Positions 1 through 34,158 of a stretch of DNA of 64,000 nucleotides are shown here, in pieces (positions within the stretch are counted from its first letter, which is position 1; every line of letters starts with the position of its first letter). The notes under the pieces were generated by a model. That model was not told where the DNA came from, ran no database searches, and worked only from the letters and a program-made list of their open reading frames with translations. Location of the stretch: positions 558,001 through 622,000 of the forward strand of contig JAALGY010000034.1 of NCBI GenBank assembly GCA_032358165.1, written 5' to 3'. Made by a program: the position numbers and the translations under genes. The DNA comes from Diplosphaera chodatii (Eukaryota > Chlorophyta > Trebouxiophyceae > Prasiolales > Stichococcaceae).

Positions 1-2877
1 GACGGCAAAGTCGATGGGGGGCAGGGCGTGCTGCGCGGAAAAGTCTTGGCCGGTGCCGGAGGCCCAGTTCTGGGGCGGGCAAGACCGAGCCCAGGGGTTG
101 AAGCGAACCCAGGGGCTGCCCTGCGGCCAGAAGCCCTCCTCCCCTGTGGTGACCTGAGCATGCAGCACGCCTGCGCTCACGCATGTGCCACGCCCAACAT
201 ATTGTGTAAATCCTGTCATTTGGCACATCACACATCCTAATCAGGCCTTCACGTACGTGAAATCGTGCTACAGGCTATTTCGCAGGCGGTTGGTATCAGT
301 ATTGTTCAGGCGTGGCGCTTGCACAGCTCGTGCATGTGCAGGAACACTCTCGAGTATAGGTGTCAGCCAAAGCCTAATTGCTGTCAGACACTGCAGGACG
401 CTGTATCACCAGATGGAAGGGGTCGATGTTCTTGATGTGAGTGGCAATTGTCTGATAAAATGCGGTGACTTCCGCTGGAAATCCTGCAGACAGCATGAGC
501 ATAGCCCGGCATGCATCTGCCTTTTGCTCTGCCAAGACAAGCATTAACTTTGCGCCATACTAGAACAATTCAAGTCGTGCGCCACAATGTGTGCTACTGG
601 CTGCAGTATCGGTGCAAGTGAACACTAGCATGCCCCTGCACCTGGAGCAGCTTGACTTGCTGGATTTCGTGGCTCGTTGAGGATATTCCATGCAAAGATG
701 GCCGGCTCGGCACTGTATCTGTTGCCATTGAAAACATTCACCCGGTTCAACACCTGCAATGGAATTCAGGCAAACTATAAGACACAACAGATTCTGATAC
801 TCTCTTCCATAGCTGGACAAAACCGTTCGCAGCAAGCAGCCCGATGTGCAGCAAGCGACCTTCGTGATGTGGGCCTTCATGACGGCAGTTCCTCTGGTTG
901 AATTGAAGAAGTCATCCTTGCTGCTGATGTCGGCCCAGTTAATGTACTGATTGTACAAATATCTGGTAAGGGGTTAGGGGGTTCTGAAGCAAAATGTTGC
1001 TGCAAACACAAGCATTTGCTAACAGGTCGTGCACAGCCACTGCACAAACATGATGATAAAGCAGCCTATATATGTGCGCAGGAGAATGGAGCTTCGCACA
1101 TCCCCGAGGCTGTCTTGGTAGTCCCAATAGCCGCTGAGTGCCACAATGACCTTGATGCCAAAACGCCCTGCCTGGGCGATGGTGTAGTCCAGCCCCCTGA
1201 AGATGTCCTCATTGAAAATCCCTGCACAGAAGCACTTTCAGAATTTCAGCGTGCTTGGATGTGAGGCAGGGCACAATGAAGCACCTGGGGTGTAGGCAGG
1301 CCCAGCTCTAGGGTTCGGGCACCACACACACTCCTTGTGTGGCACACCCCACAGAGCGGTTAGTAAGTGAGTAACCCACAATGCAACAGACGGTGTGGAT
1401 CAAGCCGCAGATGCGCTCGCTGAGCTGTTCTCATCGGCTGACTCATTGCCAGATGTGAGCCTTCTCGTATAGCACACGAACTGCTTTCACGACTTGACGT
1501 GGAAACGTTTTGTTGACGCACCTGGGCTAGTCTCGAGACCCTTGCCTTCGCCCTCGCCCCCGCTGGCAAAGATGCGGACTGTGTTCAGCCCGTTATTGAC
1601 TGCGTCCCTGTAGCGCTTGGTGACGTAGTCGTCCTGGCTGGCCAGCGCTCCAGGCCCGCTGCCCTGTACATACCTCCCCGCCAGGACTAGATCGTTGTAC
1701 CTGCATTGACGGCACATGCTATCAGTGCATTTCTCACGTCAATACAGCTTTGGTTTGGGCTGGTGCAAGTTGCCTCTCAGCACATTGCCGGCACAAGTCG
1801 CCGCGGGTGATTCTATCGATGCCCCCTAATCGCCAGCACCCTCAAGCTTGACGTCAACAGGCAAGACATCGCGTGGCAAACTGCAACGTTGCAACGCTGC
1901 ATACGTGTTCCAACCAGCGGGCAGGAACTCGTGGCAGGCGTCATCCACGAACTTGAGGCCAGACACGCGGATTAGGCCGGCCGGTCTGTTTGCCGGCGCT
2001 GGTCCAGCCTGCACAACGAGGAACTATAGTCCATGAGCGCTCAAGGGCAAGACAGGACCTCTCATCTCGTGATGTGGTAATTCTGATGCCGTTTAGCGAC
2101 ATGGGAACGCAATAATGGTAACAGCAGTATAGGTGACCCAACCAATAGAAGAGTGCAGCTGTTGCTTGTCATGCTGCACCTGAAACACCGGAGGAACGGG
2201 GGCCGGCACAAGCTTGGGCGGCGCTGGGATGCCCGCTGGCAGGTCATAGCGCGGCACCGGCACCTGCTTCGTTGGAGCATCCGCCCTGCATTGCACGGTA
2301 TACACTATATAAAGTCCACAGCAGCTGAGCGGGCGATACAACCGAAAGGTGCATCTGCAGCAGCTGACCGGCGCCCGGGACACATAGCACGTGTAATTGT
2401 GCAGGCTGGTTTGGAGCAGCAACGGATGCTGTTGCCAGGCCTGCTTCAGCAAGGCACCTATCTGTTTGACAGGCATGTGCGGATCATGACGTGTTCCTGC
2501 CTAATTATTTAATATGCACAATGACACCCGGAGCGTGAACCACATTGTTGTATCAATGGTAGGTTGCAAACTGTTGACACACCGACCTACTACCACCCAA
2601 GGAGCTTGAACGAAGACACAGTGCAACACCATTTCTACATCAGCAGCACTGCTGATGATCTGGAGCAACGCATGTGGTCGGCTGAGAGCCACTCTGCTGT
2701 GTCACACAGTGTGTACACCCGAAATCCTGTCAATAGCACTGCTAATGTTGACAGGGTCCAAAGTGAACCGGCGTACATGCACAACCCAGCGCACCTGCCT
2801 GCTGCTGTGACTCCTTGGCCAACCACTGCTGAACAGCTTATCAGCATCGAGACCAGCAGGACCTGGTGATGAGCCAT
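1..2877 (-). CDS. Secreted GH5 endo-beta-1,4-mannanase, copy 1 (3' end beyond window)
   Basis: Hydrolyses beta-1,4-mannan backbones outside the cell (glycoside hydrolase family 5, plant subfamily 7 type). Nine exons join with closed phase: 2795-2877, 2180-2285, 1905-2008, 1522-1700, 1100-1221, 860-946, 642-753, 410-483 and 1-153, giving 340 residues before the window edge. Residues 1-27 (MAHHQVLLVSMLISCSAVVG) are a signal peptide; a short Pro-rich linker follows (VPAPVPPVF). The fold starts at FVDDACHEFLPAGWNTY; NTVRIFASGGEG, DYINWADISSKDDFF and the acid/base motif AWNILNEPRNP (Glu of NEP) follow, then VTTGEEGFW. The nucleophile exon lies off the left edge. A tandem paralog lies just upstream at 3600-9362. 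Family assignment is firm; natural substrate (wall mannan or storage mannan) is inference. Confidence 0.92.
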
Positions 2878-3599: not shown

Positions 3600-6500
3600 T
3601 CAGCGCCATGATGCATGCTGCTCAGCCCGCTGCTGCATTGGAGGAATCTGCTGCCACCGGCGCAGATAGCGGTGCAGATGCCGGCGAGCCTCGCGGCACA
3701 CATCCTGGGACTGCAATGCGCGGTCGACTTGCAAGGTATTGCGCATGAGGATACACGATGTCCCTGCAGGCCAAGGTTTGCAGCTGTCAGCGTGTCATCA
3801 TATGGCACGAACAATTCCAGCATGACCTCCTGTAGAGGTGCTGTTGTGAGACCTTGGGAATTCATGCCACATGCAGAATGAGATGCAAATGTCAAGCGCT
3901 GTGATGCAGACAGCACAAGGAAAGGGTGGCTCTCGGCTATCACATCTGTATCCGTATATCTGTACACCAAGCAGAGCGCTATTACTCGGAAGCAAAAGAT
4001 AACCATTCAACACTGTGCTGCTAACAGCAGCGGCGGATCCAATGTTTGTGGATATCTGTGGCTGCCCATGGCTCTGCCCAGGTTCGAGCTGACGAGCGGC
4101 AGGAGTTTGAGGGTCGAAGGCGCACTGGAAGGCGGTGTCGTTGGTCTCAACGCCCCGCTCGGTGCGCGCCGCCCCCGGGAACAGCCACTCCCAAAACAGG
4201 GCACTGCGCAGCGGGCCGCCGCTGGCAATGCTGGCATTGACGGCGGAGTACACCCGCCTGCAGTGAAAGTGCAGAGCATCATTGAGCGCAGAGCGCGGGC
4301 AGCACCTCAGCTTTGCAAAATGAGCTGCACCCACCCAGGTTCACGAATGTCAGACCTGGTGGCTGTGCAAATGCGACAGAGGCCTGCTTATGGTGATCGT
4401 GGTGAATGTCCTCCTGAGCAGACCACTTGCGGAGGCAAAGTGCACACGAACAGTGCGGCTTGCCTGTAGTAGGGGTCGCGGTCTCGTTTCAGGCGGTTGC
4501 TGGTCTGACTATCAACAGTCACCTGCAGTGAGGGCAGCACCAACACGATTGACAGAGCTGTGCCTCTTGCCATTTGCTGGGTTGGCGTCACTTCCAATAA
4601 TGCTGTAACACGTCAGTCCGGCAGTGTGGGTTGGGTCAGGGAAAATGCTACACACTGTCTGATGACAGAGGATGAGGAAAGTGGCTCACATTATAATATG
4701 TCTTGCCCGGAATGGGCACAGCAGAGCCCACTTTGCCAAACTCCTCGAGCACCAGCGGCTTGTTGGGCAGCCTTTCTCGCATCGCCTTCTCGTGGCCACT
4801 GATCCAGAGTGGCACGAAGCGCAAGTCTGCAATCAGATGTGCACCACACGAATTAAGTTCCATTGCTGGCAGACGCTGCCTGAACACCCAGCTGACAATC
4901 CCCGTAACACACTTGTACCCAGGGAGGGATCGAGTACTCACCCAGAGTGTTGAAGTTGTCCGGCCACATGTGGAATGCTGCATAGTCGATGTTGGGGCTG
5001 GCGCTTTGCGGCACAAAGTCCTGCACAGCAGCAGAGCTGCATTTGTGTGCCTGTCACCAAAGCTGGCATTGGCATCTCTTGCCGATCCTCCTTGCCTGCC
5101 TATGTCGAGCAGCATGTGCTCTCTTGCTGTATGTTCTGGCGCTGGATTCAATGAGACAGCAGAGTCGGCCGATGTGATGTTTGGTATGAAGCTTGCTTAA
5201 AGTACGCCAGCGTGTCCCAAAGTTGATTGCAGACAATGTTCGACGGTCTGCCAACCTGCCCAATGCGCTGCGACCAGCCGGGCAGCACGTTGCCGGGGGT
5301 GCCGAAGGGGTTGTACGGCGTGTAGGGGCTGCCCTGTGCAAAGAAGCCCTCCTCTCCCAGGGTCACCTGTTCATGCAGGTGCACCAGCAGTACGTTGGAG
5401 CTGCCACAAGTAGCTGCACCGGTAGAACACGGTCACGACGTCCAGATATGGCAAGCTGCAAGCCAGCCAGGCGGCTGCTGTAAAATAGTGATGCAAGACA
5501 AGCACCGTAGGGTTTGTTTGCCACGCAAGGGTGCCATGCAGGCGTCAAATTCATTGCATCAACCAGGTGATAACAATGAATTGGACACTGTGCAGTCAAT
5601 CTACACCAGTACCACCAGTACGGTGCTGTCGAGCAACTGCTGTGTCCCACCAGGTGGTTGGGGTCAATGCTCTTGGCGAATGCCGCCATCTGGTTCGTCC
5701 AGGCTGTGACCGGCCCGGGTTTACCTGTGCAGGCAAACTGCCACTGCATCTGCATCTGTGCTGAAGCTGCACAGACATGCAGTTTCTTGATGCACACGGG
5801 GACACGGCGCCACTAGTCGAGCAGGCAGAAGCCTTGTCAGGCTGATGGATGCTGTTACATGCTCAGATGGTATGTCAGCGGGTACTCCCTAGGGCCTGCT
5901 TCAAGCGCTCTGTCACCTGGGCCTACTTGCGCATAGGGGTTCCGTGGCTCGTTGTACAGGTTCCAGCTGAAGATGGCTGGATCGTTCTGCAACCGAGAAG
6001 CATGTGCGTGAGCATATACTAATTCGCAACAGGGTGTCCAGCCAGCTGCCACTAGTATACACTAGCACATGCTCATGCTATCATGCACTCACAAATGCCA
6101 AGGCAAGTATGAAATGTCGGATCAAATGAGAGTTGGGCCAGTTGGGGTTGCACCATCAAGTTGATGTCACCAACCTTATACAGCAGCCCGGTGTAGACAT
6201 TGCGGCGGTTGAAGAGTGTGCGCACATGGTTCATGTACAGCTGCTTCACACGAGGGCTCGTCCAGAACTTATCCGCATCTGTGGTTGGATCCAGCCCAGC
6301 CCACTTAAGATACTGCATGCATAGGAAAGCTGTGTGAATGCTGAGAGCCTACCGCATGTTACACTCTGGCCATGGTAAGCTTAGCGATTAGATGTGCAGC
6401 ATCCGACTCCTCAAGTGCGAGACTGTCCTGTTGTGATTGTACTTGCACCAACCGATATATATGTCATCACCGTAGTGCACACCACTCACAAACATGGACA

Positions 6501-9362
6501 TTCTGATATTCAAGGGAAAGCCAGCACAGCGCACCGCTCCCCTGTTGTCAGGGATTTGCCAGTTGTCAATGATGCTGAGTACTGCCTGCAACAAAACATT
6601 CCGTTTGACTATAAGTATGTGGATGCGATTCGGGCTCCTGCGTGCCTTGCGATGTCATCTGGCAAGCAGCCACTACCCCAGTTGGCAAGATGCCGCTCGC
6701 ATGCAATTAGGTTCTCTGCCTTCACATGCTATCATGTGTGACCTGCTGCCAGAACTCAACACCTTGAGACCATAATTGCCGGCTTGGGCGAGCATGTAGT
6801 CGATCGCCTTGAACACTGTCTCATTGTAGCGCCCTGCACACAGCAGAGGAAACACGGCCATGCACGACGAGCTGCGTGAAGAGGACATATTGGAACCCAG
6901 GGGTGCTCGTGTTGTCAGAACCGGCAAGCCTGTGGCATGTTCGCAAGGGCTTTCGCAGCTCTGTATTGGATGTGCACTCACCTGGGCCGGGCTGAAGGAT
7001 GAATCCGGAGAACTCCCCGCCAGTGGCAAACACACGGAAGACCGAGAGGCCATACCGCTTTGCTTCCTGCACAGGGAAGGCAGGCGTACGACTGAGGAAA
7101 AAGTCATACATTACAGAGAGTAATCAGCTCCTTATTGTCAGCTGCGTGCTTCACCTGGAAGCGGCGGGTTGCCACATCGTCTTGGGCATCCAGGTACGCC
7201 TGCGCGCGGCTCAGAGGCGGCGGCGCTGGCTTGCTGGTGCCCGTCAGCACCAGCTCATTGTACTGCAAGCACAGCAGGGTTGCACGATCTCATGATCTAA
7301 CGTTGCTGATGGCCTGGTGTGAACATGCGCTGCAAACCCCAGCCCAGTAATATAAATCCACCATGTCGTCATGCGGCAGTCGTTGCAACACTCACACACC
7401 TTCAACTGTAACTTCACAAACTTTATTGGCTGACAAATCTGAGCAGTAAGGTCTGATTGAGAGTCAAGCAGGATGCACACTCACAGAGTTCCACCCAGAG
7501 TATAGGTATTCTGTGCAGTCATCTGCCACGAAGTGCGGGCCAGCGGCGCGGATGATGCTCGCCTTGGCAACTGGCCCAAATATGCCTGTGCTTCCTCACA
7601 TTGCCAGCATCAGCATCTATCAGTCAGCAATGGGTCAAGGCACAGTTGACGTCGCAAAGGCACGGCGCTGGGCCCATCGAATCATCAGGCAGTCCTGCAT
7701 ATACAATCAGTCTCCAGGGAATACTTCTCCAATTGGTTGAGCTACGTCAGTGAGCCCTTGGGAGCCACCTGTTGATGATGAGGGTGCGGGTGCTGCAGGC
7801 GCTGGCGCAACTGTTTCCACCTCAGGCGCAGGCGCCGGCTCAGGCACAGGCTCAAAGGCAGGCGCAGCCTTTGGCAGCGGCGCAGGCACAGGCGCAGGCA
7901 CAGGCTCGGGCAATGGGGCTGGCTCAGGGGCCGGGACTGCCAGCTTTGGCACTGGAGCTGAGACCGCCCCTTTTGGTGGAGCTGTTGGCTCTGCTGTCAC
8001 TTTGGCCTGAACGACTGTCGCTGGGAGGAGCTGCGCAACCGGCACGGAGGCCGGCTCAGGCGCGGGCGCCAGCAGCGATTCGACCGCCTGCAGGACAGAC
8101 GGTGCAGCCGCGGGCAGCTTGGGGGCAGCGGTGGGCTTCGGGGTGGGCGCCACCACAGGTGCTGGGGCTGGCACAGGCGCCGGCTCCGCCACAGGCGCTG
8201 GCTGCAGTGTTGACGGCAGCTTTGCTGCGACCAGCGGGGGCCTCGCTTCGATGGCCGGTGCCAGTACTGGTTCGGGTGCCGGTGCTGGTGCCGGCGCCGG
8301 TTCTGGTGCTGGGGCTGGTACTGGGGCTGGGACTGGCTCTGGTGCAGGTACAGGGCGAACGAACCCCAGTTCTGCACTCGCACAATATGTAGGACTGTAG
8401 TCACGGCTGCAGGGTGGATGGCACTGCAGCATGGGCGCAGTGGGGTGTGCGATTGTTTGCACAGGGATCACTGCTGTATGGTGTGCAGCGCGCAGTGACA
8501 TGCATCACATCTTGGGTCACCTCCTGTCGCCCCAGCTGGTGCGTTCTGCACAGACCAGCTGCAAATCCTCAGCTGACGGATACAACCATGCAGCATCAGC
8601 ATCAGGCGGTCAGGCAAATCTCTGATTGACAGGGCAACCGACATGCTGTCTAGGTGCAGGCAGGCAAGCAGGGTGTGGGTTTGCACCTGGCCTACAAGCA
8701 CCGGCCCAGGCAGTGAAGTTTGCTTTGGAGCCGGCTTTGGCGGCGGAGGGGAGTTGGCGACGAAGCTGAAGCCCGGCAAGTTGAGCGCCGGCAACGGCGG
8801 CACGCGCAGGACGAAGGGCTCGGCAGCGGGCGCAGGCGCAGGCGCAGCGAAGGTCAGTGGGAACCCCGGAATTGCGCCGTCCGCGGCCTGGCTGTCCTGC
8901 ACCTGCTTGGGCAGGATGCCTCCCGGCGGCGGCGGTGGAGGCGACGGCGGCGGCCAGTCAGTCTTTGCGGGCACCGGTGGTGGCGGTGGCGGTGGCATCT
9001 TGGCATCTGTGAGGAGAACACATCCAAACATCTCGTGATGAGCTGTTCAATCGGGTGAGTTCCACCAACGTCCCATGCATGACACGATGCGCACGCTGTG
9101 GCAGCAGTCAGGTGCCTTGCACAGTCCTGCATATCTCACAGGCTGATACAACATGGGTTCATGGCATCAGGACATCGTGTCGTGCACCTGATGTGGGTTG
9201 AGCTGCAGCGAAAGCCGTGGTGGGCAGCTGTTGTCTCAGGCTGCCACGGGTGTTGCTCCGAACCTGCCTGCCGATCTGTGCCGGGGTCAGCAGCAGAGTG
9301 ACAACCAGAGCCAGCTGCATCAGGGGCCGGCAGCCGGTGGGCATACGGGGGCTGCCGAACAT
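3600..9362 (-). CDS. Secreted GH5 endo-beta-1,4-mannanase, copy 2, with long Pro-rich N-terminal region
   Basis: Same enzyme family as the gene at 1-2877. Seventeen exons join in phase: 9188-9362, 8687-9006, 7769-8423, 7485-7585, 7155-7262, 6982-7066, 6763-6833, 6535-6585, 6175-6312, 5917-5986, 5651-5724, 5256-5366, 4942-5020, 4690-4826, 4464-4504, 4014-4257, 3600-3710; about 856 residues, twice the usual mannanase size. The start gives a signal peptide (hydrophobic LMQLALVVTLLLTPA). Two Pro-rich blocks follow, one with PPPPPPP/PPPSPPPPPP runs and one of some 200 residues of PAPAPEP-like repeats, separated by a small Cys cluster (CHPPCSRDYSPTYC). The catalytic domain runs from GPHFVADDCTEYLYSGWNS through SWNLYNEPRNP (acid/base Glu) and PLVLEEFGKVG (nucleophile Glu) to GPLRSALFWEWLF. 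The intron at 4258-4463 has a GC donor. The last two exons are less certain. Confidence 0.9.
4258..4463 (-). other. GC-AG intron in mannanase copy 2
   Basis: The exon ends TACTACAG and the intron begins GCAAGC, a perfect GC-type donor; the acceptor CTGCAG precedes GCGGGTGTAC. Only this join restores the family sequence (RDPYYRRVYSAV). No GT donor nearby gives the right phase. Confidence 0.8.
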
Positions 9363-9996: not shown

Positions 9997-12664
9997 TCAA
10001 CAGGGCCGCTTCCGCAGCGTCAGCCGCGCCTCGGCGATCTTGAAGTGTGTGGAGTTGGGCAGCGCTGTGCGCAGCTGCTGCCACACCTGCGAGCCCAGCA
10101 AGATTCACCCTCTCTCTGCCGCAGAACACCCTAGATGCCGGTTCTGCTTTACACTGATTGTGTGTTGCCAAGCGTCCGAGGAAACTTTGTCAAAGGCTCA
10201 ATAGTATGCTGCACCTGTGCGGTCAGCTCAGGCAGGCCAAACTCGGGGGTGACGTCCACTCGCAGGAATTTCAGGGATGGTATCGATTTCAGGATGTCTG
10301 TGGTTTCCTCATATGTCTTCCGGTTCAGGTCAGGGTTTCTGCAAATAAACATCGGTCAGCGGGTATCAACTTCACGGAGTCAACTGCCTTCAGCCGCCAG
10401 AAACAATACGTAGTTACTATCCCGCCTGCAACATTCCAAGGACACTCGTCGAAATTTGAGCAGCACAGGAAGGTGTGAGGGTTCCTCACCTGTACACGTA
10501 ATCAGCTACTTCTTCTGACAGGCTGCTGCAAGCGTGGAAGGCTGTTGTGTGCAGGTGGGCAATGAACTGCTCCTTGGAAAGCAACAGATGCGCCCAGTCT
10601 GGTATGACGCTGCATGGCATGATGACGCAGGACTTGGGTTACAGAGCATTTGCCAGTGTTGGCTGTCAAGTTGCTTTGATTGTCGCATCACGTGGCCAAA
10701 GCTCAGCAAAACGACCCTCTGGCAGTCCACCTGCCGTCATGTGCATATGCCACAGGGCTGCAGTTCAGCTTCTTAGTCATGCTTTCGACCTGCATATTGC
10801 ACCACATATGCATCCGGACCACCAACAACCAGAGGAGCACATCGGCGTTGAATTGATGATACTTCACTGTGAGGGTGCAGCGTTTTGCTAGCGAGCACCG
10901 CCTCAGAGTGAAATTGCAACAGACAATCACCACATCAGGATGTATGTGGTGGCCCCGTGCGCTCTGCCAGCTGGGATACCAGGAAACGTACATGTAGCCG
11001 CCAGGACGCAGCACCCGTGTGGCTTCTGACAGGTATAACTGCAAATCGGAAGAGCAAAACAGTGATGGAATTTATCAGGATGCAGTTCCTGGGGTTCACA
11101 CTCAGCTGCGTCATTGGTAATCCAGATGTGGCAAACGCCGTTTTCTGTGTTGCACATGCTGAGGTGTTGTACTGTGCCACTACCGTTCATTACCTGCAAG
11201 TCCTGCACATGCTCCAGTATGTTCATGCTAAGGACAGTGTCGAAAGTTGCGTCCGCAAAGGGCAGCCGATCATGCGGGTGGCCAAACACAAAGGCGGTGC
11301 TGTTGCTGCCGCCCTTGGCCAGGAATTCTTCTGGCGAGCCCACGACGTTGAACCCCACCTTGAACCCGCGGGTGTATCGTTGCAGCTGTACCAGCTGGGC
11401 CCCTGCAGCTCAAAAGACCACATGAGCATGCACGCGCTGTGAAGCTGTTGGCAAAGTGGTCAAACAGGCATGCTGTCATGATGCCAAGCATCACGCAACC
11501 ATCGATGCTTCAGCACCCATGCATCGCATATTGTAAATGGCTAGCACACTTGCCTGAAGGGTCTGCACCATAATCAAGGACGTTGCCGAGGTCGATGGGA
11601 TTATGCAGGATTTCATCCACCATGCCAGCCTGATCTATCATGCAGTCGACACCGGAGGCAAAGACTGGGCAGATGCTGGCCCAGGACCAGTCCTTTTCGC
11701 GAGCACTCTGCAACACATGCAGACCACCTTGAAGGCGCACGCTTCATCAGCTGAAGGCCATAAGGGTCCCATGTTCCTATGCAGTGGGCTCACGCACCTT
11801 CAGGATCATGAGCACGTTGCGGATGTTCATCCTCTGGTAGTCGGCGAGAACCTCCGACTTGGGCATTTGCGCTGCAGGCTGCTGTGTGGCGGCCACAGCC
11901 TGCATGTTGTCCGAGATGCGCAAGACTCCTGTGCATTGGGAACACATGGCATGGCGTCGTTCAGGGCATGTACATCATGCACGTGGCAGAGTGTAGGAGG
12001 CACACACGCATGGCCAACTCTACCTGTCAATATTGCACGGTCTACATCTGCGGGAGAAAGTTGACCAATGCTGCAGCTGCTCTGTGTCGTCAGCAGCGAG
12101 GGTACCAGGTACACCGACCTTGCTGCTGAGCCGCCGAGGTGATGTATGGGCCCAGTGCACGCCACAGGATCATTTGCGGCTGGCGTACCCTGCTGGGCCT
12201 TGGCATCTGCGCCGCACGGTCCGGACGAATCAGCTGACGGTGGTGCTCCATACTGCCGCCCGTTCAGCAGCATGCGTGCTGGACGAAGCTAGCTACTCTT
12301 CAATATGTTCCGCAAGATTCAGAATCTATTCAACGCTGAGGCTGAGGCAACAGTGGCGGCCAGACGGACGGTCGTGATGGCTATCATGTGGCCATGGCAT
12401 GTAGCGCACCATGCTTGGGCGCAGCAGCGTCTCCTAATGACGTGGCAGGCAATGAGCGGCCTGTATGCAGGATATCTTCACCTTTGCACCCACACAGAAA
12501 GGATCGCACACCATTGAGTGTGCATACACCGACGAAGAATCAGCGCAGACAATGGGTGCGTGAGCAACAAGATGGGCTGCACAGATTGCACCATGATAAG
12601 CAATTAGAACCGCAGCCAGCAGTGCTGTGCATAGAGCGACCGCCCACAGCTTCAACTGCTTCAT
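9997..12664 (-). CDS. Membrane-anchored class I SAM-dependent methyltransferase, copy 1
   Basis: Predicted to transfer a methyl group from S-adenosylmethionine; the acceptor is unknown. Ten exons close in phase: 12530-12664, 12024-12252, 11798-11928, 11554-11707, 11194-11402, 10931-11038, 10731-10789, 10490-10609, 10215-10338, 9997-10086; about 452 residues. Residues 1-27 (MKQLKLWAVALCTALLAAVL) form a short basic start plus one membrane segment, as in type II Golgi proteins. The Methyltransf_11-like core reads GNVLDYGADPSG (motif I variant, normally VLDxGxGxG), DRLPFADATFDTVLSMNILE and ATRVLRPGGYMYVSWYPSWQ. The C-terminal part has SVIPDWAHLLLSKEQF. The first residue of the second exon is tentative. 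A paralog follows upstream. A wall-sugar O-methylation role is inference from anchoring and neighbours only. Confidence 0.85.
11403..11553 (-). other. GC-AG intron in methyltransferase copy 1
   Basis: Exon end GACCCTTCAG is followed by GCAAGTGTGC; the acceptor is GAGCTGCAG before GGGCCCAGC. The junction rebuilds DPSGAQLVQ. The paralog uses a GT donor (GACAG|GTATTC) at the same codon. Confidence 0.82.
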
Positions 12665-22593: not shown

Positions 22594-24542
22594 ATGAACT
22601 CGGTGCCGTCAAAGGGCTGCGTGATGGGCACGGCTGTTGCCACCCTGCTGTGCGTTGCGCTGATCACCACTGCACGGTGGATGGCACCAGAAGTGCTGCC
22701 GCAGCTGCATCTCGCAGGCCAGTTGCTGCCCAGGAGCCTCCCGACCCCGCTGCAGCCTGCACCGCCTATCCAGCACGAGCTGCTGCAGGCCGTACGGCAC
22801 GCAGCATCACCAGCAGGCGGCGTCTTCCTAGCAGTGAGTCCCCTGCATGTGCGGCAGCAAGAGCGCAGTAGTGCATGCCCTTGCTTCCAGCATGTCACCG
22901 TGCTTCCCAGCACTGGCCATGCAAGCAACAGCACTCCTGGTCCAGGCTCATCAGCAGTTGTTCGATGTTGAGATGCTCAACAAGCATGCGGCACTTCTTA
23001 CTGCTGTGCAGGCGGGCGGGAAGTCCAACGTGATGTACGAGCTGCCGCTGCTGGTGCGCAGCATGCGGCTGGTGGAGAGCGCCGACCTGTCAAAGCACCT
23101 GGTGGTGGTGTGCAACAACGACGCGGCGCTCAGCGCGTGCCGCCGCCTGCACGGCAACTGCCTGGTGGACGACTGGGCCACCACAGCCAGCGCGGCGCTC
23201 GTGGTGACGGACGACGAGCACCACAGCTGGTCGACGGCGGGCTTCAACAAGGCCAACTGGCGGCGGCGGGAGCTGCTGAACGACATCGTTCAGCAGGTGT
23301 GCATGTTTCGTGCTGCTGCAGCTGTCGAGCTGCAAGCCTCAAGTCCCTTGAAGCACCACCACTGCTGTTCCAGATTTTGTTGACGCAGCATGCACATGCA
23401 GCCGTGCGAATGGTTCCGAGCCTCTGCTAGCTGTGTATGCAGGGGTTCAGGGTCGTATCTCTGGACATGGGTGCGTGGCTGCCTTCATGACCTGATGCTT
23501 CCTGCTCATCCATCAAGCCAGCGTGTCTATCGCCTGCTGCTGCCACTTCCTTCTGCTGCATGCGGCACCACTTTGCCAGCTCTCGGTACACATTTTGACA
23601 CATGTGGCTGCATTGCTGCAGACATTGTCCTGTTCAGAGACCCTATGAACCCTGCCAACAATCCACTGGCAGAAGCCGACGTCTACATGTCCATAGATGC
23701 TGCGCCTGGTCGGAACGCACCAGCTGGAAACGTGAACACTGGCATGATAGGCATGCGGGACGGGCCTGCGGTGAGCTACATTGGTCAGCTGGGCGACCGC
23801 ATGCAGGCTGTGAGGATATTTGTGTATGTTGTGTCCTTGGTCTCTATCTGCTGCAAAGTGCTGCAAAGGTAGCCTGCTATGTCGTCACGTGCACAGTTTC
23901 CTTTTTTGCAGTGCCCCAAGATTGCACCTTCTTATCAGTTCTCCAGGGCTGCTATGCACCGTGCAGGCCAGAGCGTTCATGGATGCTTGGCTTGGCGGCC
24001 TGACCAATTTGACAGCAGACGATGCAGTGCCCTGGGAACAGCAAGCAGCAACTATGCTTCTGAATAGCAGGGCAGATCTGCGTGCGTCCGTGAGGTTGCT
24101 CAACGCCAGCTACCTCCCCAGTCTGTGAGTGCCACTTATTGGCCTACTTGTGGCATAGTCCTGCACTGCTATGTGTTATTGTCGACCAATCAACCAAAGG
24201 AGCCTGATTCAGCACCAGCATGCACTCTCCAGTGCTCCAACATAGGATGCTTGTTTGCAAGGTCACTTCATGATCAGGTTGCCAATTGTGGTCTCTCTAC
24301 GTGCCTTGCACAGGTGCAACGTAGACTACGGCACACGACAAGGGTTGCCCAGCCAAGACGCCTTCGAGGATGCTTTTGCTGCCAAGAGTACAGGCAACGG
24401 CGCATGGGACACTGTGCTGGGCTTTCATGTGCCATGTTGCATCAACACACGGCCGACGCCAAACACTTGCAAGCGGTATGTAGAGGGTGCGCTCAATGCT
24501 TGGCTTCATCACTGTAACATCACACGGTGGCAGCCACCATAG
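22594..24542 (+). CDS. Type II membrane GT77-like glycosyltransferase (PF03407 type), copy 1
   Basis: Nucleotide-sugar transferase of the PF03407 type used by GT77 enzymes, which in plants include extensin arabinosyltransferases; expected in the Golgi. The start gives a short N-terminus then one membrane segment (GTAVATLLCVALITTA). The second exon begins AGGKSNVMYELPLLVRSM and carries HLVVVCNND and FNKANWRRRELLNDIVQQ. A 28-base microexon (23443-23470) encodes GFRVVSLDM; its last base joins the next exon to make DMDIVLFRDP, the metal-binding DxD motif. Next come VNTGMIGMRDGP and WEQQAATMLL, and the C-terminus has CNVDYG, LGFHVPCCINTRP and RWQPP then TAG. Copy 2 at 32010-34158 is close in sequence and exon plan. 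Donor sugar is inferred, not shown. Confidence 0.88.
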
Positions 24543-24561: not shown

Positions 24562-24651
24562 TACAACAAGGAAGCGCCTTGCAGAAGCTTACATCCATGC
24601 AGCTTGATGCCAAAGCTGCTTGACGTTGCAACTTGCCAAGTGCAATGTCCG

Positions 24652-26342
24652 CAGTTGGAAAACGAGCGAAGCAACATCCAATGGAAGCAAACGTACGTTC
24701 ATTACTGTATAGTATCATCTGACAGCACGTGTAAATAAGTGAAGTTTGAGATGTCTTTATGGCTACAGATGCTCACAGCCAATGTTTTGTTGCTGAGCTA
24801 ACGTCATATTCAAGAAACAACATACCAAAATGCAAGCAGTTGAAATTTTTAGAATACCCCGCCGCGAGCGAGCAATTGGTAAACTATTGCACAAAGTCGA
24901 TGTTGTCATCCCCCATTAGCGGACCGTCTGAGCCACAGGACCCAATGGCCAATACCACTGCAGAGTGCTGCCGGCAGTGCGCTGTTGTTGTAGCAACTCG
25001 ATGCCCATGACACTGTCCCCACCATATCGCTATCAAATATGGTGAGATCAAATACAAAAGATATAGAAGATCAAATATATGTGCAAGGGCTATCAACATG
25101 CACACACATATCAAACTAAATTACATCTCGTAAGTTGTGACGTTTGTGTTGCCAAGCGCATGGTGCTTTTTGGCAGACGTGCCGTTTCATGATATGGGCA
25201 AACCGGCACATGAGGCCGACCCCGGCGTGCAGTTGTTGCTGCGGTGTGTAGGCGGGCCAGCTTGCGCAAGCTGCAATGTGCAATGTGCTCAGTCACATGA
25301 GGCGAAACAATAGTCCCCATTTTGGTACGAACAGTACGACCCTGCCGGGCACTCTGCTTGGCTGTTGCCAGTGGTGAGGGGGTGATAATATTGGTCGTTT
25401 TGTGGGCGGCGTTTACCCTCGTGGTCGATGGTGCAATAAGGGCATGCCATGTTCGTAGTGTCCGCGTTGCTGGCGTAGCATATCTGGGTGTTAGCTGGTG
25501 CGCCACAGTGTAGAAGCACCGTACTGCCGAAGTCGCACGTCGCCCGGCAGGCCCTGGGCTCACGTAGATCACACAGCCTGCTGTCGCAGTCGGCGTCCGT
25601 GGTACATACATGGCTGGCCGTTGTTTGCCGCGGGCGGTGGCGGAGGGCTGCACATCATCCACATCACAAGTCGGCTGCCAAGTGTGAAGTGAACCCAGTA
25701 TTTGGTTGAATGTCTTGTGCATCCTTAGCATGCTGTCAACGGACGGAGATGACACATACCGAGACAAAATGCACTCGTGACATCAAGTATACATGGAATG
25801 GTCTCCATGCTTCACACACAGGTAAGAGGGTCATAGGTCTCGCTGTGAGTGATGATTGGAATGCTGATGCTTGGAACCTTACCTTTGGGGTGGTAGGTGG
25901 TCGGTCTTGGGGGTGGCAGACTAGTTTGCGGCCCCTGGATCTGGAGCGAGGTGCGCACAACATGTTGTGCATTCACAAATTCATGTCACGGTCAGCAAGC
26001 AAGGCCCCGTGGTTTGATGCTGACCTGGCAGCGCATCGGCTGTGCTTGCTTTTGGCAGCTGAGCATGAGTGCAGCGTGCCGCTGGATGACACCGTGCGCG
26101 ATGCCACTTGATCAACTGGCATCTCTGGCAGGCGTGTAGTACAATGGCATCATTGCAGTGCTATGGTATCTGCGAGCCGACCTCACTACACCATGTGGTG
26201 TATGCCCCTCTCTGGTGTTCGATGGTGCTGCCGCCATGCAACGTGGAGGTGCAGCGGCTGCCATGTTTTGCTGAGGTTGCGCCACAGGGGGCGCCCAGCA
26301 GCTCAGCAATGCCGGCGCATTCGTGCAACATATTGTAGTGAC
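24652..26342 (+). pseudogene. Decayed copy of the cellulase 3' region
   Basis: At about 24652 the plus strand reads QLENERSNIQWKQTY, matching QLEDEWSSIHWEKVEY of the intact cellulase-like gene (about 20955). At 26160-26340 it reads CYGICEPTS, then VEVQRLPCFAEVAP and SSSAM, matching CDGICEPNS, LEVQRLPRLAEIP and SSAM at its C-terminus. The catalytic exons are absent, the hydrophobic tail is lost (the frame ends after CNIL) and the Cys-rich exons between are not recognisable. The fragments are in the same order and strand as in the parent, so this is a duplicated 3' end that has decayed. A minus-strand remnant of the HRGP last exon lies inside it. Confidence 0.7.
25289..25647 (-). pseudogene. 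Frameshifted copy of the HRGP gene's last, Cys-rich exon
   Basis: The acceptor (GTGCAG|CCCTCCGCC at 25647) and the start PPPPPAANNGQPC match the HRGP last exon at 27346. Near 25600-25612 a net change of reading frame occurs; in the new frame the Cys pattern resumes (DADCDSRLCDLREPRAC, ATCDFGSTVLLHC, CPYCTIDHEGKRRP, CPAGSYCSYQNGDYCFASCD) to a stop at 25289. It is 359 bases against 340 in the intact exon. No signal-peptide, repeat or upstream exons are present on this side, so it is an orphan exon copy and probably dead. Cys spacing is still well kept, so decay is recent. Confidence 0.72.
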
Positions 26343-27006
26343 GCTGGCAGTCATACCGCACGCACAAGACCGCTCCTGCCGCACTCACAGTCGGGGTGCT
26401 GCAGGGAATAATGCTGCACGTGGCTGTGTCAGATGGTTCTACGAGTACCATCTTGCATGAGCACTGCAAAACAGCTGAAGGTTGAGTTCGTGCCATAACA
26501 ACATGTTACAGCCATCGCCTTTCTGCTTAGCCAGTGTTTTGACTAGCAAATGAAAGAAAGCAGAACGGGTCTCAGCCGACCCTCATGTTCAACAAAAGCA
26601 TATCAGAAAGCAAGCCATTAGCAAATCCGCTGGCAACTGCTGTACTCAAAACGAGATGCGGTTGCAGTCATGTCCGCTTAACAAACTGTAATCCGAGCTG
26701 TTGATCACTTCACCAATAGCATGCACTGCAGAGCGCTTCCGGAAGAGCAATGAGGAAAACTAGCAGACTCGATCCCCACGATACTGCCCCTCACCACATC
26801 GATCGATGTCCACAATGACAGGATAGCAAGAGCTGCCAGCATGTTGCACGTACGCACATGTGAAAGCTAAACCAACAGCGTCATTGGGCTAGATAAATGC
26901 GCCACTGTGCTTTCATAATATGTGCAGACAGGCGCACAAGGCCCCGGCTGCTGTTGCGGTGTGTAGGCAGGGCAGCTTCATCCGTATGCTGCAGCAAGTG
27001 TGCGCT
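26343..27006. other. Intergenic stretch downstream of the HRGP gene
   Basis: No exon supported on either strand. It contains the 3' flank of the HRGP gene (stop at 27007). Confidence 0.45.
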
Positions 27007-30000
27007 TCAAGGGCATAAGGCGAAACAGCCATCGCCATTTCGGTATGAACAGTACGACCCTGCCGGGCAGACAGCCTCGCTGTTGCAAGGAGTGTAGGGA
27101 ATAGCATAACTGCCAGTGTGCGGGCGCCGGTGACCATCATGGTCAAGGGTGCAGTACTGACATGATGGGCTGCCAGCGGCATTGTCGGCATAGCACGTCT
27201 GGCCGTTGGGACAATTCCCGAACACAGTGCTGCCGAACTCGCACGTCGGCGCGCAAGTCCTGGGCTGGCGCATGTCGCACACGTTGCTGGCGCATTCGGC
27301 GTCCGCAGCGCACGGCTCGCCATTGGCCGCGGGCAGCGGCGGAGGGCTGCACGATATCGAAACCATAGGTCAATCGCCTCACTAGTTGTATCATCCTAGC
27401 CTTTGGATGAGTGGTGTAAATTGTGCAGTGTGTGTTTGACATACTGCCAGCACCACAGAAGGCGAGAGCGGACGAGGCCAGATGCGCTCATGCCGTGGAA
27501 GCTTGTATGCAGTTGTTGATTCCCAGGCTTCCACACATGCATAGGTGTTGCTGCCAGAGTTGAGTAAAACCTCATTGTTGGGGCCCCACCTGGGAGGTGG
27601 TGCAGGAGGCGGGCTCGGAGGTGGGGCAGGCGGCGGACTTGGTGGCGGAGCAGGCGGCGGACTGGGTGGCGGCGCAGGCGGCGGACTTGGTGGCGGCGCA
27701 GGCGGAGGACTTGGTGGCGGCGCAGGCGGAGGACTGGGGGGCGGGGCAGGCGGCGTGCTGGGTGGTGGGGCAGGCGGAGGACTGGGTGGTGGGGCAGGCG
27801 GAGGACTGGGTGGCGGGGCAGGCGGCGGACTTGGTGGCGGAGCAGGCGGCGGACTGGGTGGCGGCGCAGGCGGCGGACTTGGTGGCGACGTAGGTGGCGG
27901 GCTCGGTGGTGGTGCAGGCGGCGGACTGGGGGGCGGCGCAGGCGGCGGACTGGGGGGCGGCGCAGGCGGCGGGCTTGGTGGCGGCGCAGGCGGCGGGCTG
28001 GGTGGCGGCGCAGGCGGCGAGCTTGGTGGCGGCGCAGGCGGCGGGCTGAGTAGTGGGGCAGGCGGCGGACTTCGTGGCAGCGCAGGCGGCGGGCTGGGTG
28101 GTGGTGCAGGCGGCGGACTTGGTGGCAGCGCAGGCGGCGGGCTGGGTGGTGGGGCAGGCGGTGGGCTGAGTGGCGGCGCAGGTGGCGGGCTGGGAGGTGG
28201 GTTGGACGGCGGGCTCAAGCCCGCCACCTGACCCACCCCCACGTTTGGGAGTGGTGCAGGTGGCGGGCTGGGTGGTGGGACAGGCGGCGGGCTGGGTGGT
28301 GGTGCAGGCGGCGGGCTTGGAGGCGGTGCAGGTGGAGGATTCGGGGGCGGTGCCGGCGGTGGGCTGAGCTGTAAATTGGGCGGCGGGCTGAGAGGTGGAT
28401 TGGACGGTGGGCTCGGGGGTGGTGCTGACGGCAGGCTGGGAGTGGGGCAGGCGGCGGTGCTGGCGGAGGACTGGGGGCTCTCGGGCTTGAGCGCGACGCA
28501 GGCGGCGGCCTGGGTGGCGGTGGCTTCGGCAACTTGGGGCGAGGCGATGGTGGCGGGCGTGTTGGCGGTGGTGGTGGCGGCGGCGGCGGCGGGCGGCTGG
28601 GTCGTCGCTTGGGTGCTGCAACAGATTCATGCATGCAACGTTAAATGCCAGCCAGATTGGTGCCGACCAACCTCATGCAGGCTTGTCTGAACGTCTTGGT
28701 TGATAATGCTACGACGAAATAATCCAGCATGTAAGCTACGTGGTCGACATTGGACACTGCTATTGCAGTGCTCACCGGTGCAGGATGCGCGCGCCTTGTT
28801 TATGGTGGAACCACGTGCGCAACTCCTGCCAACGCAAACCCAACATCATACAACCAGTTTGCCGCTTTTTTACATGGGCTCGGGTGACAATGCAAACACG
28901 CAGATGCGTCTGCACGCTGACCACATTCACACATGCAGCATACATGTTCACCGACAGCTGGAGGCGCCAGTTTGCGGTGTCCAACCCCGCCCAGAGCACA
29001 TCACACACCTGCACTCAAACAACTCAAACACCTGCGTTTCCTGAGGTCGAATGTTTCGTGCAACCACCAAATAGCGCCAGGATGCACATCTGCAATCCGA
29101 GGCAAGCGGAAAGGAAAAGGCTGCATCGGTCTGGCCAGACTTGACACCGTGTGTGGTGTGGCGCATACAACCATAAGCAAGAGAAGGTACGTACTTGAAG
29201 TTGCCGACACCACGCTTGGCGAACCCAGGCCGGCACTTGCGTGCATTGTGCTTCGTGAAACCAGCCAATGGCTCGACACCCGAGCGGCACACTGCACCAC
29301 AAATCAATACAGTCGCCAACCGCTCAAGTGGTGTGGTACGAGGTGCACTGACAGCCGCATGTGCAGATGATGCATCACACTGTGAGCCACTATACTGCAC
29401 TTGCACACAAGCACAGCAACATTGCACCCGTCCTGTGGATGCGTTGTATTGTGCAAGGGCACACTCCTTGCAGAGCGATAGCCTAGTACTCACCGGCTTC
29501 GCCATCCTTCAGAACGAACAATGCGGGGCTGCGGACCTGAGTACACGTGGAGCCTCGCGGCGTGCTGTCTTTTGCCTTGTCAATAGTGCAGCGCAAGCAC
29601 CGCCAGTTATGCGCCTGGAAAAGGTCGTGCGTGTCAGCTATTGCATTATTAGCGGGCATGTGCATCATGTGCATGGCTTCAGGCCGGCGTATGGCGGCTG
29701 TTTGAAAGCACACGCATACAAAAATCTTCACATGAATGCGGGTGCATGTCATCACAAGTTAGCTCATCATCAGTGGCTGGCAGAGTCATCAGTGACTCAC
29801 CGTGACGCACTTCGCCTGCAACAGCAGCCAGATCGACCGTCAGGATGTGGAACACTTGCAGTACTAGTACTACTACTCCGTCCTATCGATGCTGCAAGAC
29901 CCATGTCGCTGAGCAGCATCATAGCGGTAGGTTCACATGTTCAACATCGCGCATCCACAGGAACCGGCCTTGCAACAGAGGAGTACTCACGATATAGGCC

Positions 30001-30672
30001 TCAATGAGGCTGCACTTGCCGCGGGCTTTGCCGGTCTTCGGGTGCTTGGCACAGCGCCGCAGCAGGTCAATTGCCTGCAAATTCGAATCAAATAGTGTAA
30101 CGTAGGGGACAATGTGTATGGAGGTCATCAGCCAAACAGCAGGCCTAGGCCTCGTTGAATATGCAGCCCGAGGTGCCTGCAACTGCGCATGTGGCTGAGT
30201 CATGTCTTCAACGTGTGGAGACGCTGCATGCCAACTGGAAGTGGAACTGCTTGTTGCACAAGCAGCAGATTCTGACTGCCACTGGGATGACCGCCTGGCA
30301 AGTGGCAGGCCGGCATGCTCATCCGTCGATGCTAGAACATGGACAGTAGTGACACACAACAATGGACCGCCACTGCTGCATGGCAATTCTGCCTTGGGCC
30401 GCAGGTGCGTGGGAATGCTGCTGCCGCACATGCACCTCAACAGACAGCCTCTGCACTGCTTTTGGCCAATGACAAACATGCACCACGCTCCCTCGGACAT
30501 ACAGGGCCACAGATCCTTACATCTTTGTCGCTGCGGCCGTGCAAGCTGGCCGTGGAAACCGTTGTCACCTTAGCTTACCCGCCGCCGTGCCCACCCAGCA
30601 GCACAGCGCGAGCAGCGCCAGCGGCAAGGCTACCGCTTTGCGCGGGACGCAGGTACCCTGCATGACGTTCAT
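27007..30672 (-). CDS. Secreted hydroxyproline-rich glycoprotein with Cys-rich N- and C-terminal domains
   Basis: Probable structural wall or matrix protein. First exon 30579-30672 encodes a signal peptide (VALPLALLALCCWVGTAA). One or two short exons between 30075 and 30578 are unresolved. Then exons 29991-30074 (LLRRCAKHPKTGKARGKC), 29494-29614 (NWRCLRCTIDKAKDSTPRG), 29195-29291 (VEPLAGFTKHNARKCRPGF), 27590-28615 and 27007-27346 join in closed phase to the TGA. The 342-codon exon opens with a Thr/Ala/Pro-rich stretch and continues as octads of SPPPAPPP, the kind of Ser-Pro motif that is hydroxylated and O-glycosylated in extensins and algal pherophorins. The last exon is Cys-rich (EPCAADAECASNVC, CQYCTLDHDGHRRP, CPAGSYCSYRNGDGC). 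I do not recognise the Cys domains as a named family. It lies between two GT77-like genes. Confidence 0.82.
27590..28440 (-). repeat. 24-base tandem repeat coding for SPPPAPPP octads
   Basis: Degenerate 24-base units (minus strand, AGCCCGCCGCCTGCACCACC core) fill most of one exon. Variants include SPPPALPP, STPPAPPP and SPPPTSPP, and one unit is interrupted by LPNVGVGQVAGL near 28235. Confidence 0.9.
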
Positions 30673-32009: not shown

Positions 32010-34158
32010 ATGATTGGGGAAGCGTTGTTGTCCGATTGCGGTCGTGCACATACGCACAGGCAAGGTCACACACGTGCGCCTGCAAAGTTCGCACTGAAGC
32101 ACAGACTACCTCATCAAATAAAGCTACCGCAGAAGAGCAGCTGCCTGGTAGCTGCGGTGGTCGCCGCGCTACTGTGTGCAGCGCTCGTGGTCTCATCGCC
32201 ATGGACCATGCCGGCGCTGCTGCCGCCGCTGCTGCAGCTTCTGGGCTGCACCCCGCCCCACGGCCTGCGGATTCATCTGCAGCCGCCCAGCTGGCCCATT
32301 CAACTGGAGCTGCTGCAGGCTGCGCAGCGCGCTGCGTCGCCGGACAATGGTCTCTTCCTGGCGGTGAGTACCCATGCCATGGCGAACAGCTTTACTCGGG
32401 TTCACATGGTCTTGGAAGATGGTCGTGATTGTCACTCCAGAAGTACTGCTCACCGACCATTTCGCCGCTGTGATCATGAAGTCTGGGCACCAATTCTGCT
32501 GGTTGGCCAACACCAGCGTGGGATCTGCACAGCGGTACATGCCCTACAGATTCTTGTGAGATCCCCGGATCGATACCCGAGAACGTGTCTGAGCATGCTG
32601 CGCAGGTCGGCGGCAGGGCCAACATGATGTACGAGCTGCCGCTGCTGGTGCGCAGCATGCGGCTGGTGGAGAGCGCCGATCTCTCAAAGCACCTGGTGGT
32701 GGTGTGCAACAACGCCGCGGCGCTCAGCGCGTGCCGCCGGTTGCACAGCGACTGCCTGGTGGACGACTGGGCCACGGCCGGCAGCGCGGCGCTGATGGTG
32801 GGTGACAGCGCCCGTCACGTCTGGTCCAGCGAAGGGTTCAACAAAATCAACTGGCGGCGGCGGGAGCTCATGAACGACATCGTTCAGCAGGTGTGAATGT
32901 ACTTTCCTCTGTTGTGCACCCCCGCTTAGCAGCCGCCGTTGGCAACTGCAAACAGGCATGAGCCCTACCTGCAGCCCGCTTGCCGGTGCATGATGATCAG
33001 GTTGAGATAGATGGCAGAGGATGGTCGTGGTTAACGAGACCCTGTCATGCATGCAGGGCTTCAGGGTTGTGTCCTTGGACATGGGTGCGCACAACACAGC
33101 CTTCTGCTTGATTGCTCCCTGCCACTGTCGTAGATGCCAACCTTTTGTATGGAATGCCCATCGATCGTCGATCGCCCTTTGCGCTTGCTGAAAACATGCG
33201 AGGCAGAACGAGCGCACTCGCTAGTGTATTTGCTGTGCTTTGCTGCAGATGTGGTGCTGTTCAGAAACCCGCTGGACCCGGCCGTCAACCCGCTGGCAGA
33301 TGCAGAACTTTACATGTCCGAGGACGTGGCCTACACCGCCACCTCGCTGGGAGCCGTGAACACCGGCATCATCGGCATGCGGGAGGGCCCAAAGGTGAAC
33401 GATGCTGCAGCCACACTGCAGGCGAACCTGCAGGACCCTCTTGCGGTGAAAACGACTCAGTCAGTGCTGGCACTTTGCCACGGCATTGGTGTCAAGACGG
33501 GCAACAGGACATGTGCTTGAAGCAGCATGTCCCATATGTGGGAGGCGTCTCCAGGCGGCCCGATTTGCTTGTGCCGCACGCTGCAGAGCCGGGCCTTCAT
33601 GGGCGCCTGGCTCGGCAGCCTGGCGAACCTGACGGCAGCCGACCCAGTGCCCTGGGAGCAGGCGGCGGCGACGGAGCTTGTAAACACCAGGCCCGAGCTG
33701 CGGGCAGCCGTGAGCTTCCTCAACGCCACCTATCTCCCCAGCCTGTGAGTGCGCCTGCTGCCTGCTGGCTGCCTCACTCCCACATCCGGCATCCCGTTCG
33801 TGCACTGTCCATTGCAAGGGTGGGAGCCGTGGTGCCGCAGCCTGCTGAGAGCACACACCGCTCAGGTCACGCCATGCATCCACGGCTGAGCAGCGCTGCC
33901 GTTGCCTGAGATGGTAAGGTGCTGCACGGTGACAGGTGCAACGTGGACTGGGGACCGAGAGGCGCCGACCAGGACGCCTTCGAGGACTCGTTCGCCAACA
34001 GGAGCAATGTTGCGCATGCATGGGCCACCATGCTGGGCTTCCATGTGCCATGCTGTGTGAATGAGCGGCCGGCGCTCAACACGTGCAAGCGCTATGTGGA
34101 GTCTGCGTTGAACGCGTGGCTCCACCAGCGGAACATCACAGAGTGGCAGCCACAATAG
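32010..34158 (+). CDS. Type II membrane GT77-like glycosyltransferase (PF03407 type), copy 2
   Basis: Paralog of the gene at 22594-24542 with the same exon plan. From the Met at 32010 a basic 45-residue leader precedes one membrane segment (CLVAAVVAALLCAALVV); a later start cannot be excluded. The second exon reads GGRANMMYELPLLVRSM and FNKINWRRRELMNDIVQQ. The 28-base microexon at 33057-33084 encodes GFRVVSLDM and the next exon completes DMDVVLFRNP (DxD). VNTGIIGMREGP, WEQAAATELVNTRPELRAAV and LGFHVPCCVNERPALNTCKR follow; the protein ends TEWQPQ then TAG. The block from YELPLLVRSM to CNN is almost identical to copy 1, whereas leader and introns differ, which indicates a fairly recent duplication under coding constraint. 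Likely Golgi; donor sugar inferred only. Confidence 0.87.

What the first reader, a model, noticed from the sequence alone, without database searches (positions are those of the whole stretch)
1..34158. A clustered cell-wall gene neighbourhood in a green alga
Within 34 kb lie two secreted beta-mannanases, two membrane-anchored methyltransferases, a tail-anchored GH5 cellulase-like enzyme, two GT77-like transferases and an HRGP. All are secreted or membrane-anchored and all but the methyltransferases have direct wall roles in their families. Algal walls contain mannans, O-methylated sugars and arabinosylated HRGPs, so the set could be a functional cluster for wall assembly or remodelling. Such clusters are well known in bacteria but not, to my knowledge, described in green algae.
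Basis: partly seen in the sequence, partly recalled or inferred. Interest (0 to 1): 0.75.

Follow-up and report, generated by a model that had tools for sequence, protein, structure and literature searches.

The report
Algal cell-wall gene neighbourhood, two copies
In a green alga, about ten genes for loosening, cutting and decorating the cell wall sit side by side, and a diverged second copy of the region elsewhere in the same genome shows that most of this grouping is old, although nothing yet shows that the genes work as one unit.

Summary
Window 1-34158 holds two GH5_7-type mannanases, two methyltransferases with likely membrane anchors, a GH5 endoglucanase-like enzyme, two GT77-type transferases (PF03407) and an HRGP. 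Just left lie an expansin and an expansin-FAS1 fusion: ten wall or secretory genes in about 43 kb. Eight of ten genes keep their order; the five wall genes measured have dN/dS 0.12-0.30. One GT77 and the HRGP have no counterpart in place; C30 has a GT exon relic and a different HRGP elsewhere in the set. But flanking non-wall genes are equally collinear, so conserved order does not show selection for clustering. The set reduces to about six founders enlarged by tandem duplication; elsewhere these families were not found within 50 kb of each other (by eye 57, 58). Divergent expansin/expansin-FAS1 pairs recur (six places, four close). A functional wall cluster is plausible, not shown; expression data are missing.

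The parts
1..2290 (-). beta-mannanase-like gene 1 (GH5_7 type), 3' part outside the window (to about C28:557330); possible further 5' signal exon at 3658-3703
   Evidence: model; its C30 counterpart is 38.7% identical to mannanase 2 and scores PF00150 E 7e-9; the partial window model itself gave no Pfam match
4126..9362 (-). beta-mannanase gene 2 with weakly hydrophobic N terminus and long Pro/Ala-rich linker; NEP and EEFGK motifs present (roles recalled)
   Evidence: dS 0.55, dN/dS 0.17; best PDB relatives 9m20 and 1rh9; PF00150 below cut-off (14.9 bits, cut-off 23.5)
9997..12664 (-). methyltransferase 1, N-terminal membrane anchor exon at 12578-12664
   Evidence: PF08241 E 2e-12; anchor stretch 96% identical over 25 residues in C30; dN/dS 0.18
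13306..15825 (-). methyltransferase 2, tandem relative of methyltransferase 1; possible N-terminal hydrophobic exon near 15886-16008
   Evidence: PF08241 E 2e-10; 39.6% aa identity to MT1; dN/dS 0.16; candidate N exon 81% identical over 27 residues in C30; 3' end read from the sequence
16832..22097 (+). GH5 endoglucanase-like enzyme with N-terminal hydrophobic stretch and C-terminal hydrophobic tail
   Evidence: PF00150 E 5e-9; endocellulases in PDB, best E 4e-11; dN/dS 0.12; 3' end read from the sequence
22594..24542 (+). GT77-type glycosyltransferase 1 (N-terminal membrane anchor)
   Evidence: PF03407 E 2e-16; no collinear counterpart in C30 apart from a last-exon relic, which is closer to GT2
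25301..25720 (-). decayed copy of the HRGP C-terminal Cys-rich domain
   Evidence: two TGA inside
26144..26311 (+). relic of the last exon of a second GH5 gene
   Evidence: 51-53% aa identity to the GH5 C terminus
26981..30672 (-). HRGP: signal peptide, Cys-rich N domain, (SPPPAPPP)n, Cys-rich C domain
   Evidence: not found at this place in C30
32010..34158 (+). GT77-type glycosyltransferase 2 (N-terminal membrane anchor)
   Evidence: PF03407 E 2e-14; C30 counterpart 1186579-1188726; dN/dS 0.30
34742..38612 (-). aquaporin-type channel 1; right-hand neighbour of the wall set
   Evidence: model, read as a relative of the channel below; not itself scanned against Pfam
41123..44761 (-). aquaporin-type MIP channel 2
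   Evidence: PF00230 E 3e-41

Best explanation
A real, ancestral neighbourhood of wall-loosening and wall-decorating genes, enlarged by tandem duplication and eroded by gene loss, in which parts are probably co-used but which is not shown to be one selected unit. Proposed working: the expansin pair loosens contacts between wall polymers; the secreted GH5_7 mannanases cut the beta-mannan matrix; the membrane-held GH5 endoglucanase trims glucan at the cell surface; in the Golgi, the GT77 enzymes add sugars (probably arabinose) to hydroxyprolines of HRGPs and the anchored methyltransferases O-methylate wall sugars. Such a set would serve wall remodelling during daughter-cell growth and release. 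Shown: gene identities by family match, conservation, collinearity, duplication and decay, and purifying selection on the five wall genes measured. Inferred: substrates, place of action, timing and any co-regulation.
For: Gene models with splice sites mostly conserved across two diverged genome copies; dN/dS 0.12-0.30 for mannanase 2, MT1, MT2, GH5 and GT2. Pfam and PDB family matches. Expansin and expansin-FAS1 next to the window. Clear borders: of 10 flanking proteins that I chose for scanning, none had a wall-family match; 2 of the 10 had no match at all. GH5, HRGP and GT relics show duplication and loss. Expansin and expansin-FAS1 lie in divergent orientation at all six places found (three on C28, three on C30); in four the gap is at most about 3 kb, in two it is 4-8 kb and was not read.
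Against: Collinearity covers the non-wall flanks as well, so clustering may be passive. HRGP relatives are numerous in this genome (103 exon matches), so one nearby means little. dN/dS of the wall genes is not distinct from that of the aquaporins (0.21, 0.26), though mostly lower than the other controls (0.30, 0.32, and 0.46 for a model with poor exons). No 10-mer is shared by 3 or more of 7 upstream regions. Substrate of the methyltransferases unknown.
Confidence: 0.55

Rival explanations
1. Selected functional cluster: the genes are kept together because shared chromatin or shared divergent promoters give joint expression at one cell-cycle stage (autospore wall assembly or mother-wall release), with the aquaporins supplying water for turgor-driven expansion.
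For: Six founding families in 43 kb; five non-HRGP families within 50 kb in 0 of 20000 random placements; three head-to-head pairs by the models (expansin-FAS1|expansin, MT2|GH5, HRGP|GT2); an HRGP sits inside the wall set in both genome copies, at different sites; more 8- and 9-mers shared between 7 upstream regions (5 and 6) than in block shuffles (means 0.5 and 0.9, maxima 5 and 5 of 100).
Against: Families were chosen after the fact; flanks equally collinear; other loci of the families were not found within 50 kb of each other (by eye); the shuffle was crude and no upstream regions of non-wall genes were run as control; no co-expression data.
Confidence: 0.25
2. Chance adjacency of tandem arrays: secreted-protein families expand locally, and a few such arrays happen to abut here.
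For: Mannanases, methyltransferases, GTs and aquaporins are tandem pairs; around a mannanase array on C50 the 19 kb read showed, by eye, no other wall family, apart from a Pro-rich reading frame at C50:75091-76641 (models not scanned against Pfam); expected runs of six reach 0.45 per genome copy if 20% of genes are of wall or secreted type.
Against: At f = 0.10 only about 0.008 such runs are expected; 0 of 10 scanned flanking proteins matched a wall family.
Confidence: 0.17
3. The methyltransferases, and perhaps the GT77s, are not wall enzymes but modify another secretory product, so the 'cluster' is two unrelated neighbourhoods.
For: MT2 has only weak, motif-limited PDB matches (best a D-glucose O-methyltransferase, E 1.5e-5, query residues 136-188) and few relatives (5 at E <= 0.001).
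Against: Conserved N-terminal hydrophobic exons fit the Golgi; GT77 enzymes of plants act on wall glycans (recalled).
Confidence: 0.2

Closest known systems
Conserved gene neighbourhoods of green algae (PMC7826186; abstract and passages seen)
   Same: Groups of neighbouring, non-homologous genes in green algae, some with a joint function (nitrate metabolism, urea assimilation, arsenic detoxification).
   Different: Those were defined by conservation across genomes of at least two taxonomic classes; this one is tested only between two copies in one assembly. 'Cell wall' does not occur in that main text.
Endo-beta-mannanases of family GH5 (PDB 9m20, 1rh9)
   Same: Best solved relatives of mannanase 2 over about 310 residues.
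   Different: Long Pro/Ala-rich N-terminal linker.
GT77 transferases (PF03407; plant and algal members recalled)
   Same: Family match far above cut-off; N-terminal membrane anchor.
   Different: No relative at E <= 0.001 among the 7995 candidates scored in the protein search, only a chance match in PDB; donor sugar unknown.
Expansins (PDB 2hcz, 7wvr) and fasciclin-domain proteins
   Same: DPBB domain and HFDLS stretch in the small gene; fasciclin domain in the fusion.
   Different: Expansin-type domains and FAS1 occur in one predicted protein; sequence matches to solved expansins are weak (E about 0.002).

Membership tests
GH5_7 beta-mannanase | sequence relation to solved mannanases and two catalytic glutamates | tested here: met
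   (E 3e-44); NEP and EEFGK motifs in the model (roles and subfamily number recalled). PF00150 is below cut-off for mannanase 2 and above it for C30 mannanase 1
GH5_7 beta-mannanase | activity on mannan | not testable with these tools
   needs an enzyme assay
GT77 | PF03407 domain above curated cut-off | tested here: met
   60.9 and 54.9 bits against 22
GT77 | metal-binding DxD-type motif and sugar donor | tested here: inconclusive
   LDMD stretch in both models (role recalled); donor not testable
Wall-sugar O-methyltransferase | SAM-type methyltransferase domain with N-terminal anchor | tested here: met
   PF08241 above cut-off in both; N-terminal hydrophobic exons conserved, the joining of that exon in MT2 not verified
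Wall-sugar O-methyltransferase | methylates a wall sugar | not testable with these tools
   weak PDB matches only
Eukaryotic functional gene cluster | several non-homologous genes of one process adjacent | tested here: met
   by family assignment only
Eukaryotic functional gene cluster | order conserved more than that of surrounding genes | tested here: not met
   flanks equally collinear; the two structural differences over about 4 kb among matches above 120 bits lie inside the wall set
Eukaryotic functional gene cluster | co-expression | not testable with these tools
   no expression data
Expansin | DPBB domain plus C-terminal expansin domain | tested here: inconclusive
   DPBB_1 above cut-off for the small gene (32.5 bits, cut-off 28.8); the fusion is below cut-off for Expansin_C (21.8 of 24.6) and DPBB_1 (20.9 of 28.8) but above for Fasciclin (59.1 of 22)

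The most novel reading that the evidence does not exclude
A green alga keeps a wall-loosening module as a physical gene cluster: paired expansins, mannanases, an endoglucanase, HRGP-glycosylating and sugar-methylating enzymes and two aquaporins, jointly expressed for daughter-cell expansion and release, with HRGP genes recruited into it independently in two lineages that now share one genome.
Probability: 0.2. Interest if true: 0.75.

Novelty: new member of a known kind. Interest (0 to 1): 0.42.

Why it matters
If the grouping is functional, unknown wall enzymes (the methyltransferases, the GT77s) could be read off from their neighbours, and the way an alga opens and rebuilds its wall could be studied from one locus, with use for cell disruption and transformation. 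Even if it is passive, the paired genome copies give an internal control for testing whether gene neighbourhoods in algae are selected.

Tried and rejected
A search of the genome with the PF00150 profile found nothing, probably because exons are short; protein queries worked (on). A single-pass gene prediction over the whole window fused genes and was replaced by region-wise runs. A shared promoter motif was sought: 8- and 9-mers shared between upstream regions equal or exceed the maximum of 100 crude block shuffles, but no 10-mer is shared by three regions and no control set of non-wall upstream regions was run, so I draw nothing from it. The GT77 query gave no relatives in the protein database and only a chance match in PDB, so origin and donor stay open. 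A second mixed grouping was looked for around a mannanase array on C50 and near two other expansin loci on C28: the expansin pair recurs at C28:640-644k, and a Pro-rich reading frame lies at C50:75091-76641; nothing else wall-like was seen by eye. Horizontal transfer of the mannanases was not tested; no tree was built. The genome's name was not established; two searches for hybrid green algae gave listings, and one paper (PMC12633428) was seen in passages: there the two parental species differ by about 2.7-2.8% on one chromosome, far less than here.
Full report
What was checked. The window is G000:C28:558001-622000 of an 85.6-Mb, 55-contig genome. Genes there have many short introns. I built a small gene finder trained on exons read by eye and judged its models by comparison with a second genome copy.

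Genes found. From left: mannanase 1 (-, cut by the window start), mannanase 2 (-), methyltransferases 1 and 2 (-), GH5 enzyme (+), GT77-type 1 (+), HRGP (-), GT77-type 2 (+), then two aquaporin-type genes (-), an unknown gene (-), a zinc-finger-like gene (-) and a lysyl-tRNA synthetase (-). Family evidence: mannanase 2 is closest to solved mannan endo-1,4-beta-mannosidases (9m20 E 3e-44; 1rh9 E 3e-36), although its Pfam PF00150 score is below cut-off; the GH5 enzyme resembles endocellulases (E 4e-11); both GTs match PF03407 and both MTs PF08241 well above cut-off. Hydrophobic N termini are seen in MT1, both GTs and the HRGP, weaker in mannanase 2, several of them conserved in the second copy. 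The two Cys-rich HRGP domains match no Pfam family above cut-off.

Beyond the window. To the left lie an expansin (+, about C28:554066-556600) with an HFDLS stretch and a Pro-rich reading frame at its end, and, head to head with it, a gene (-, about C28:549298-553362) joining expansin-type domains to a fasciclin domain. Next come LSM12 and a PWI-domain gene. I scanned ten flanking proteins of my choice, seven from the left flank and three from the right part of the window; matches were to CDC20, Kelch, G-patch, pyridine nucleotide oxidoreductase, PWI, LSM12/AD, DUF6510/Stc1 and lysyl-type tRNA synthetase domains, two of the ten gave no match, and none matched a wall family. Thus about ten wall or secretory genes occupy about 43 kb.

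A second copy of the region. Searching the genome with mannanase 2 revealed the same pair on C30. C28:514-620k and C30:1159-1260k are collinear, inverted, over about 105 kb. Well-modelled exons are mostly 80-97% identical, whole gene regions 64-73%; dS by a Nei-Gojobori count is 0.30-0.61 (model errors distort some values, notably lysyl-tRNA synthetase). In some searches and 20 other loci also fall in contig pairs by eye (for example C33/C50, C26/C27, C12/C32, C35/C38, C46/C49); two loci on C22 and one on C13 had no visible partner. The assembly therefore looks like two diverged sets: a hybrid, an old duplication, or two mixed organisms; I could not tell which. In each case the copy serves as a sister-lineage test.

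Result of that test. Expansin-FAS1, expansin, both mannanases, both methyltransferases, GH5 and GT2 are present in the same order in C30. dN/dS was computed for five of these eight: mannanase 2 0.17, MT1 0.18, MT2 0.16, GH5 0.12, GT2 0.30; controls: aquaporins 0.21 and 0.26, unknown 0.32, zinc-finger 0.30, lysyl-tRNA synthetase 0.46 with poor exons. Window 22.0-31.9k (GT1 and HRGP) has no collinear counterpart, apart from a last-exon GT relic at C30:1189691-1189768, itself closer to GT2. C30 instead has a 5-kb stretch (1212479-1217551) absent from C28, with a different HRGP. Among matches above 120 bits these are the two structural differences over about 4 kb, and both lie inside the wall set. 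A further GT copy at C30:1107k is broken. But the non-wall flanks are collinear as well, so conserved order is background and does not prove selection for clustering.

Elsewhere in the genome. Methyltransferases of this kind: two here per copy and one distant pair on C46/C49. Expansin-FAS1 matches at E <= 0.001 lie only on C28 and C30, at three places each. Each has expansin matches on the divergent side: close, within about 3 kb, at four of the six (C28:549-556k and 640-646k, C30:969-975k and 1218-1224k), and 4-8 kb off at the other two, where the stretch between was not read and, on C30, the matches spread over 12 kb. Outside the present locus no two of the six families tabulated lie within 50 kb; the later matches, checked by eye, add none, the nearest being expansins about 61 kb from the C50 mannanase array. 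HRGP relatives are very numerous (103 exon matches), so HRGP neighbours are weak evidence. Search tables list only the best candidates, so counts are lower bounds.

Chance. Random placement of five non-HRGP families never put four or five within 50 kb in 20000 trials; with HRGP at 35 loci, four met in 10 of 20000 and five or six in none. This overstates the case, because the families were picked from the cluster. The run estimate is fairer: 0.008 expected runs of six at f = 0.10, 0.084 at 0.15, 0.45 at 0.20; f was not measured, and 8700 genes per copy is my assumption.

Reading. I favour an old wall-gene neighbourhood built from about six founders by tandem duplication with later loss, of which the expansin pair is the best candidate for joint control. 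In print: conserved and functional gene neighbourhoods in green algae are known (PMC7826186, abstract and passages); a cell-wall one was not seen in the listings of searches, which cover only open-licence papers. An expansin-fasciclin fusion was not seen in the listing of one search; one of its papers (PMC3191482) was seen in passages. A review of the green-algal matrix mentions mannanases in streptophyte algae and expansin in streptophyte algae and ulvophytes (PMC10762512, passages), and proteins with expansin signatures were found in mother walls of Scenedesmus (PMC11839794, passages), which fits a role in daughter release.

Mended: dN/dS is now claimed only for the five wall genes measured, and the expansin pairing is given as six divergent, four close; the omitted lysyl-tRNA synthetase value, the promoter-word counts and the Pro-rich frame on C50 were added. 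None of these moves the odds, which are unchanged.

Noticed in passing
C28:514235-619772 against C30:1159100-1259905: The assembly carries two diverged, collinear sets of contigs (dS about 0.3-0.6 for the genes measured), as in a wide hybrid, an old duplication or a mixed culture.
   Followed up: partly
C28:430-442k, 549-556k, 640-646k and C30:968-975k, 1218-1224k, 1332-1352k: Expansin and expansin-FAS1 matches in divergent orientation at three places in each genome copy, close together at four of the six.
   Followed up: partly
window 34742-44761: Two aquaporin-type genes in tandem directly beside the wall genes.
   Followed up: partly
C30:1105562-1109057: A broken duplicate of the C30 GT2 together with an aquaporin exon, about 80 kb from its likely source.
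   Followed up: yes
C8:1344-1533k, C36:141-288k, C44:152-212k, C3:761-808k: Many matches to Cys-rich HRGP relatives in groups.
   Followed up: no
window 49890-54568: Predicted protein with repeated CxxC modules (DUF6510 and Stc1 matches).
   Followed up: no
window 60822-62991, + strand: Possible secreted Cys-containing protein overlapping the 5' part of the lysyl-tRNA synthetase model on the other strand; at least one of the two models is probably wrong there.
   Followed up: no
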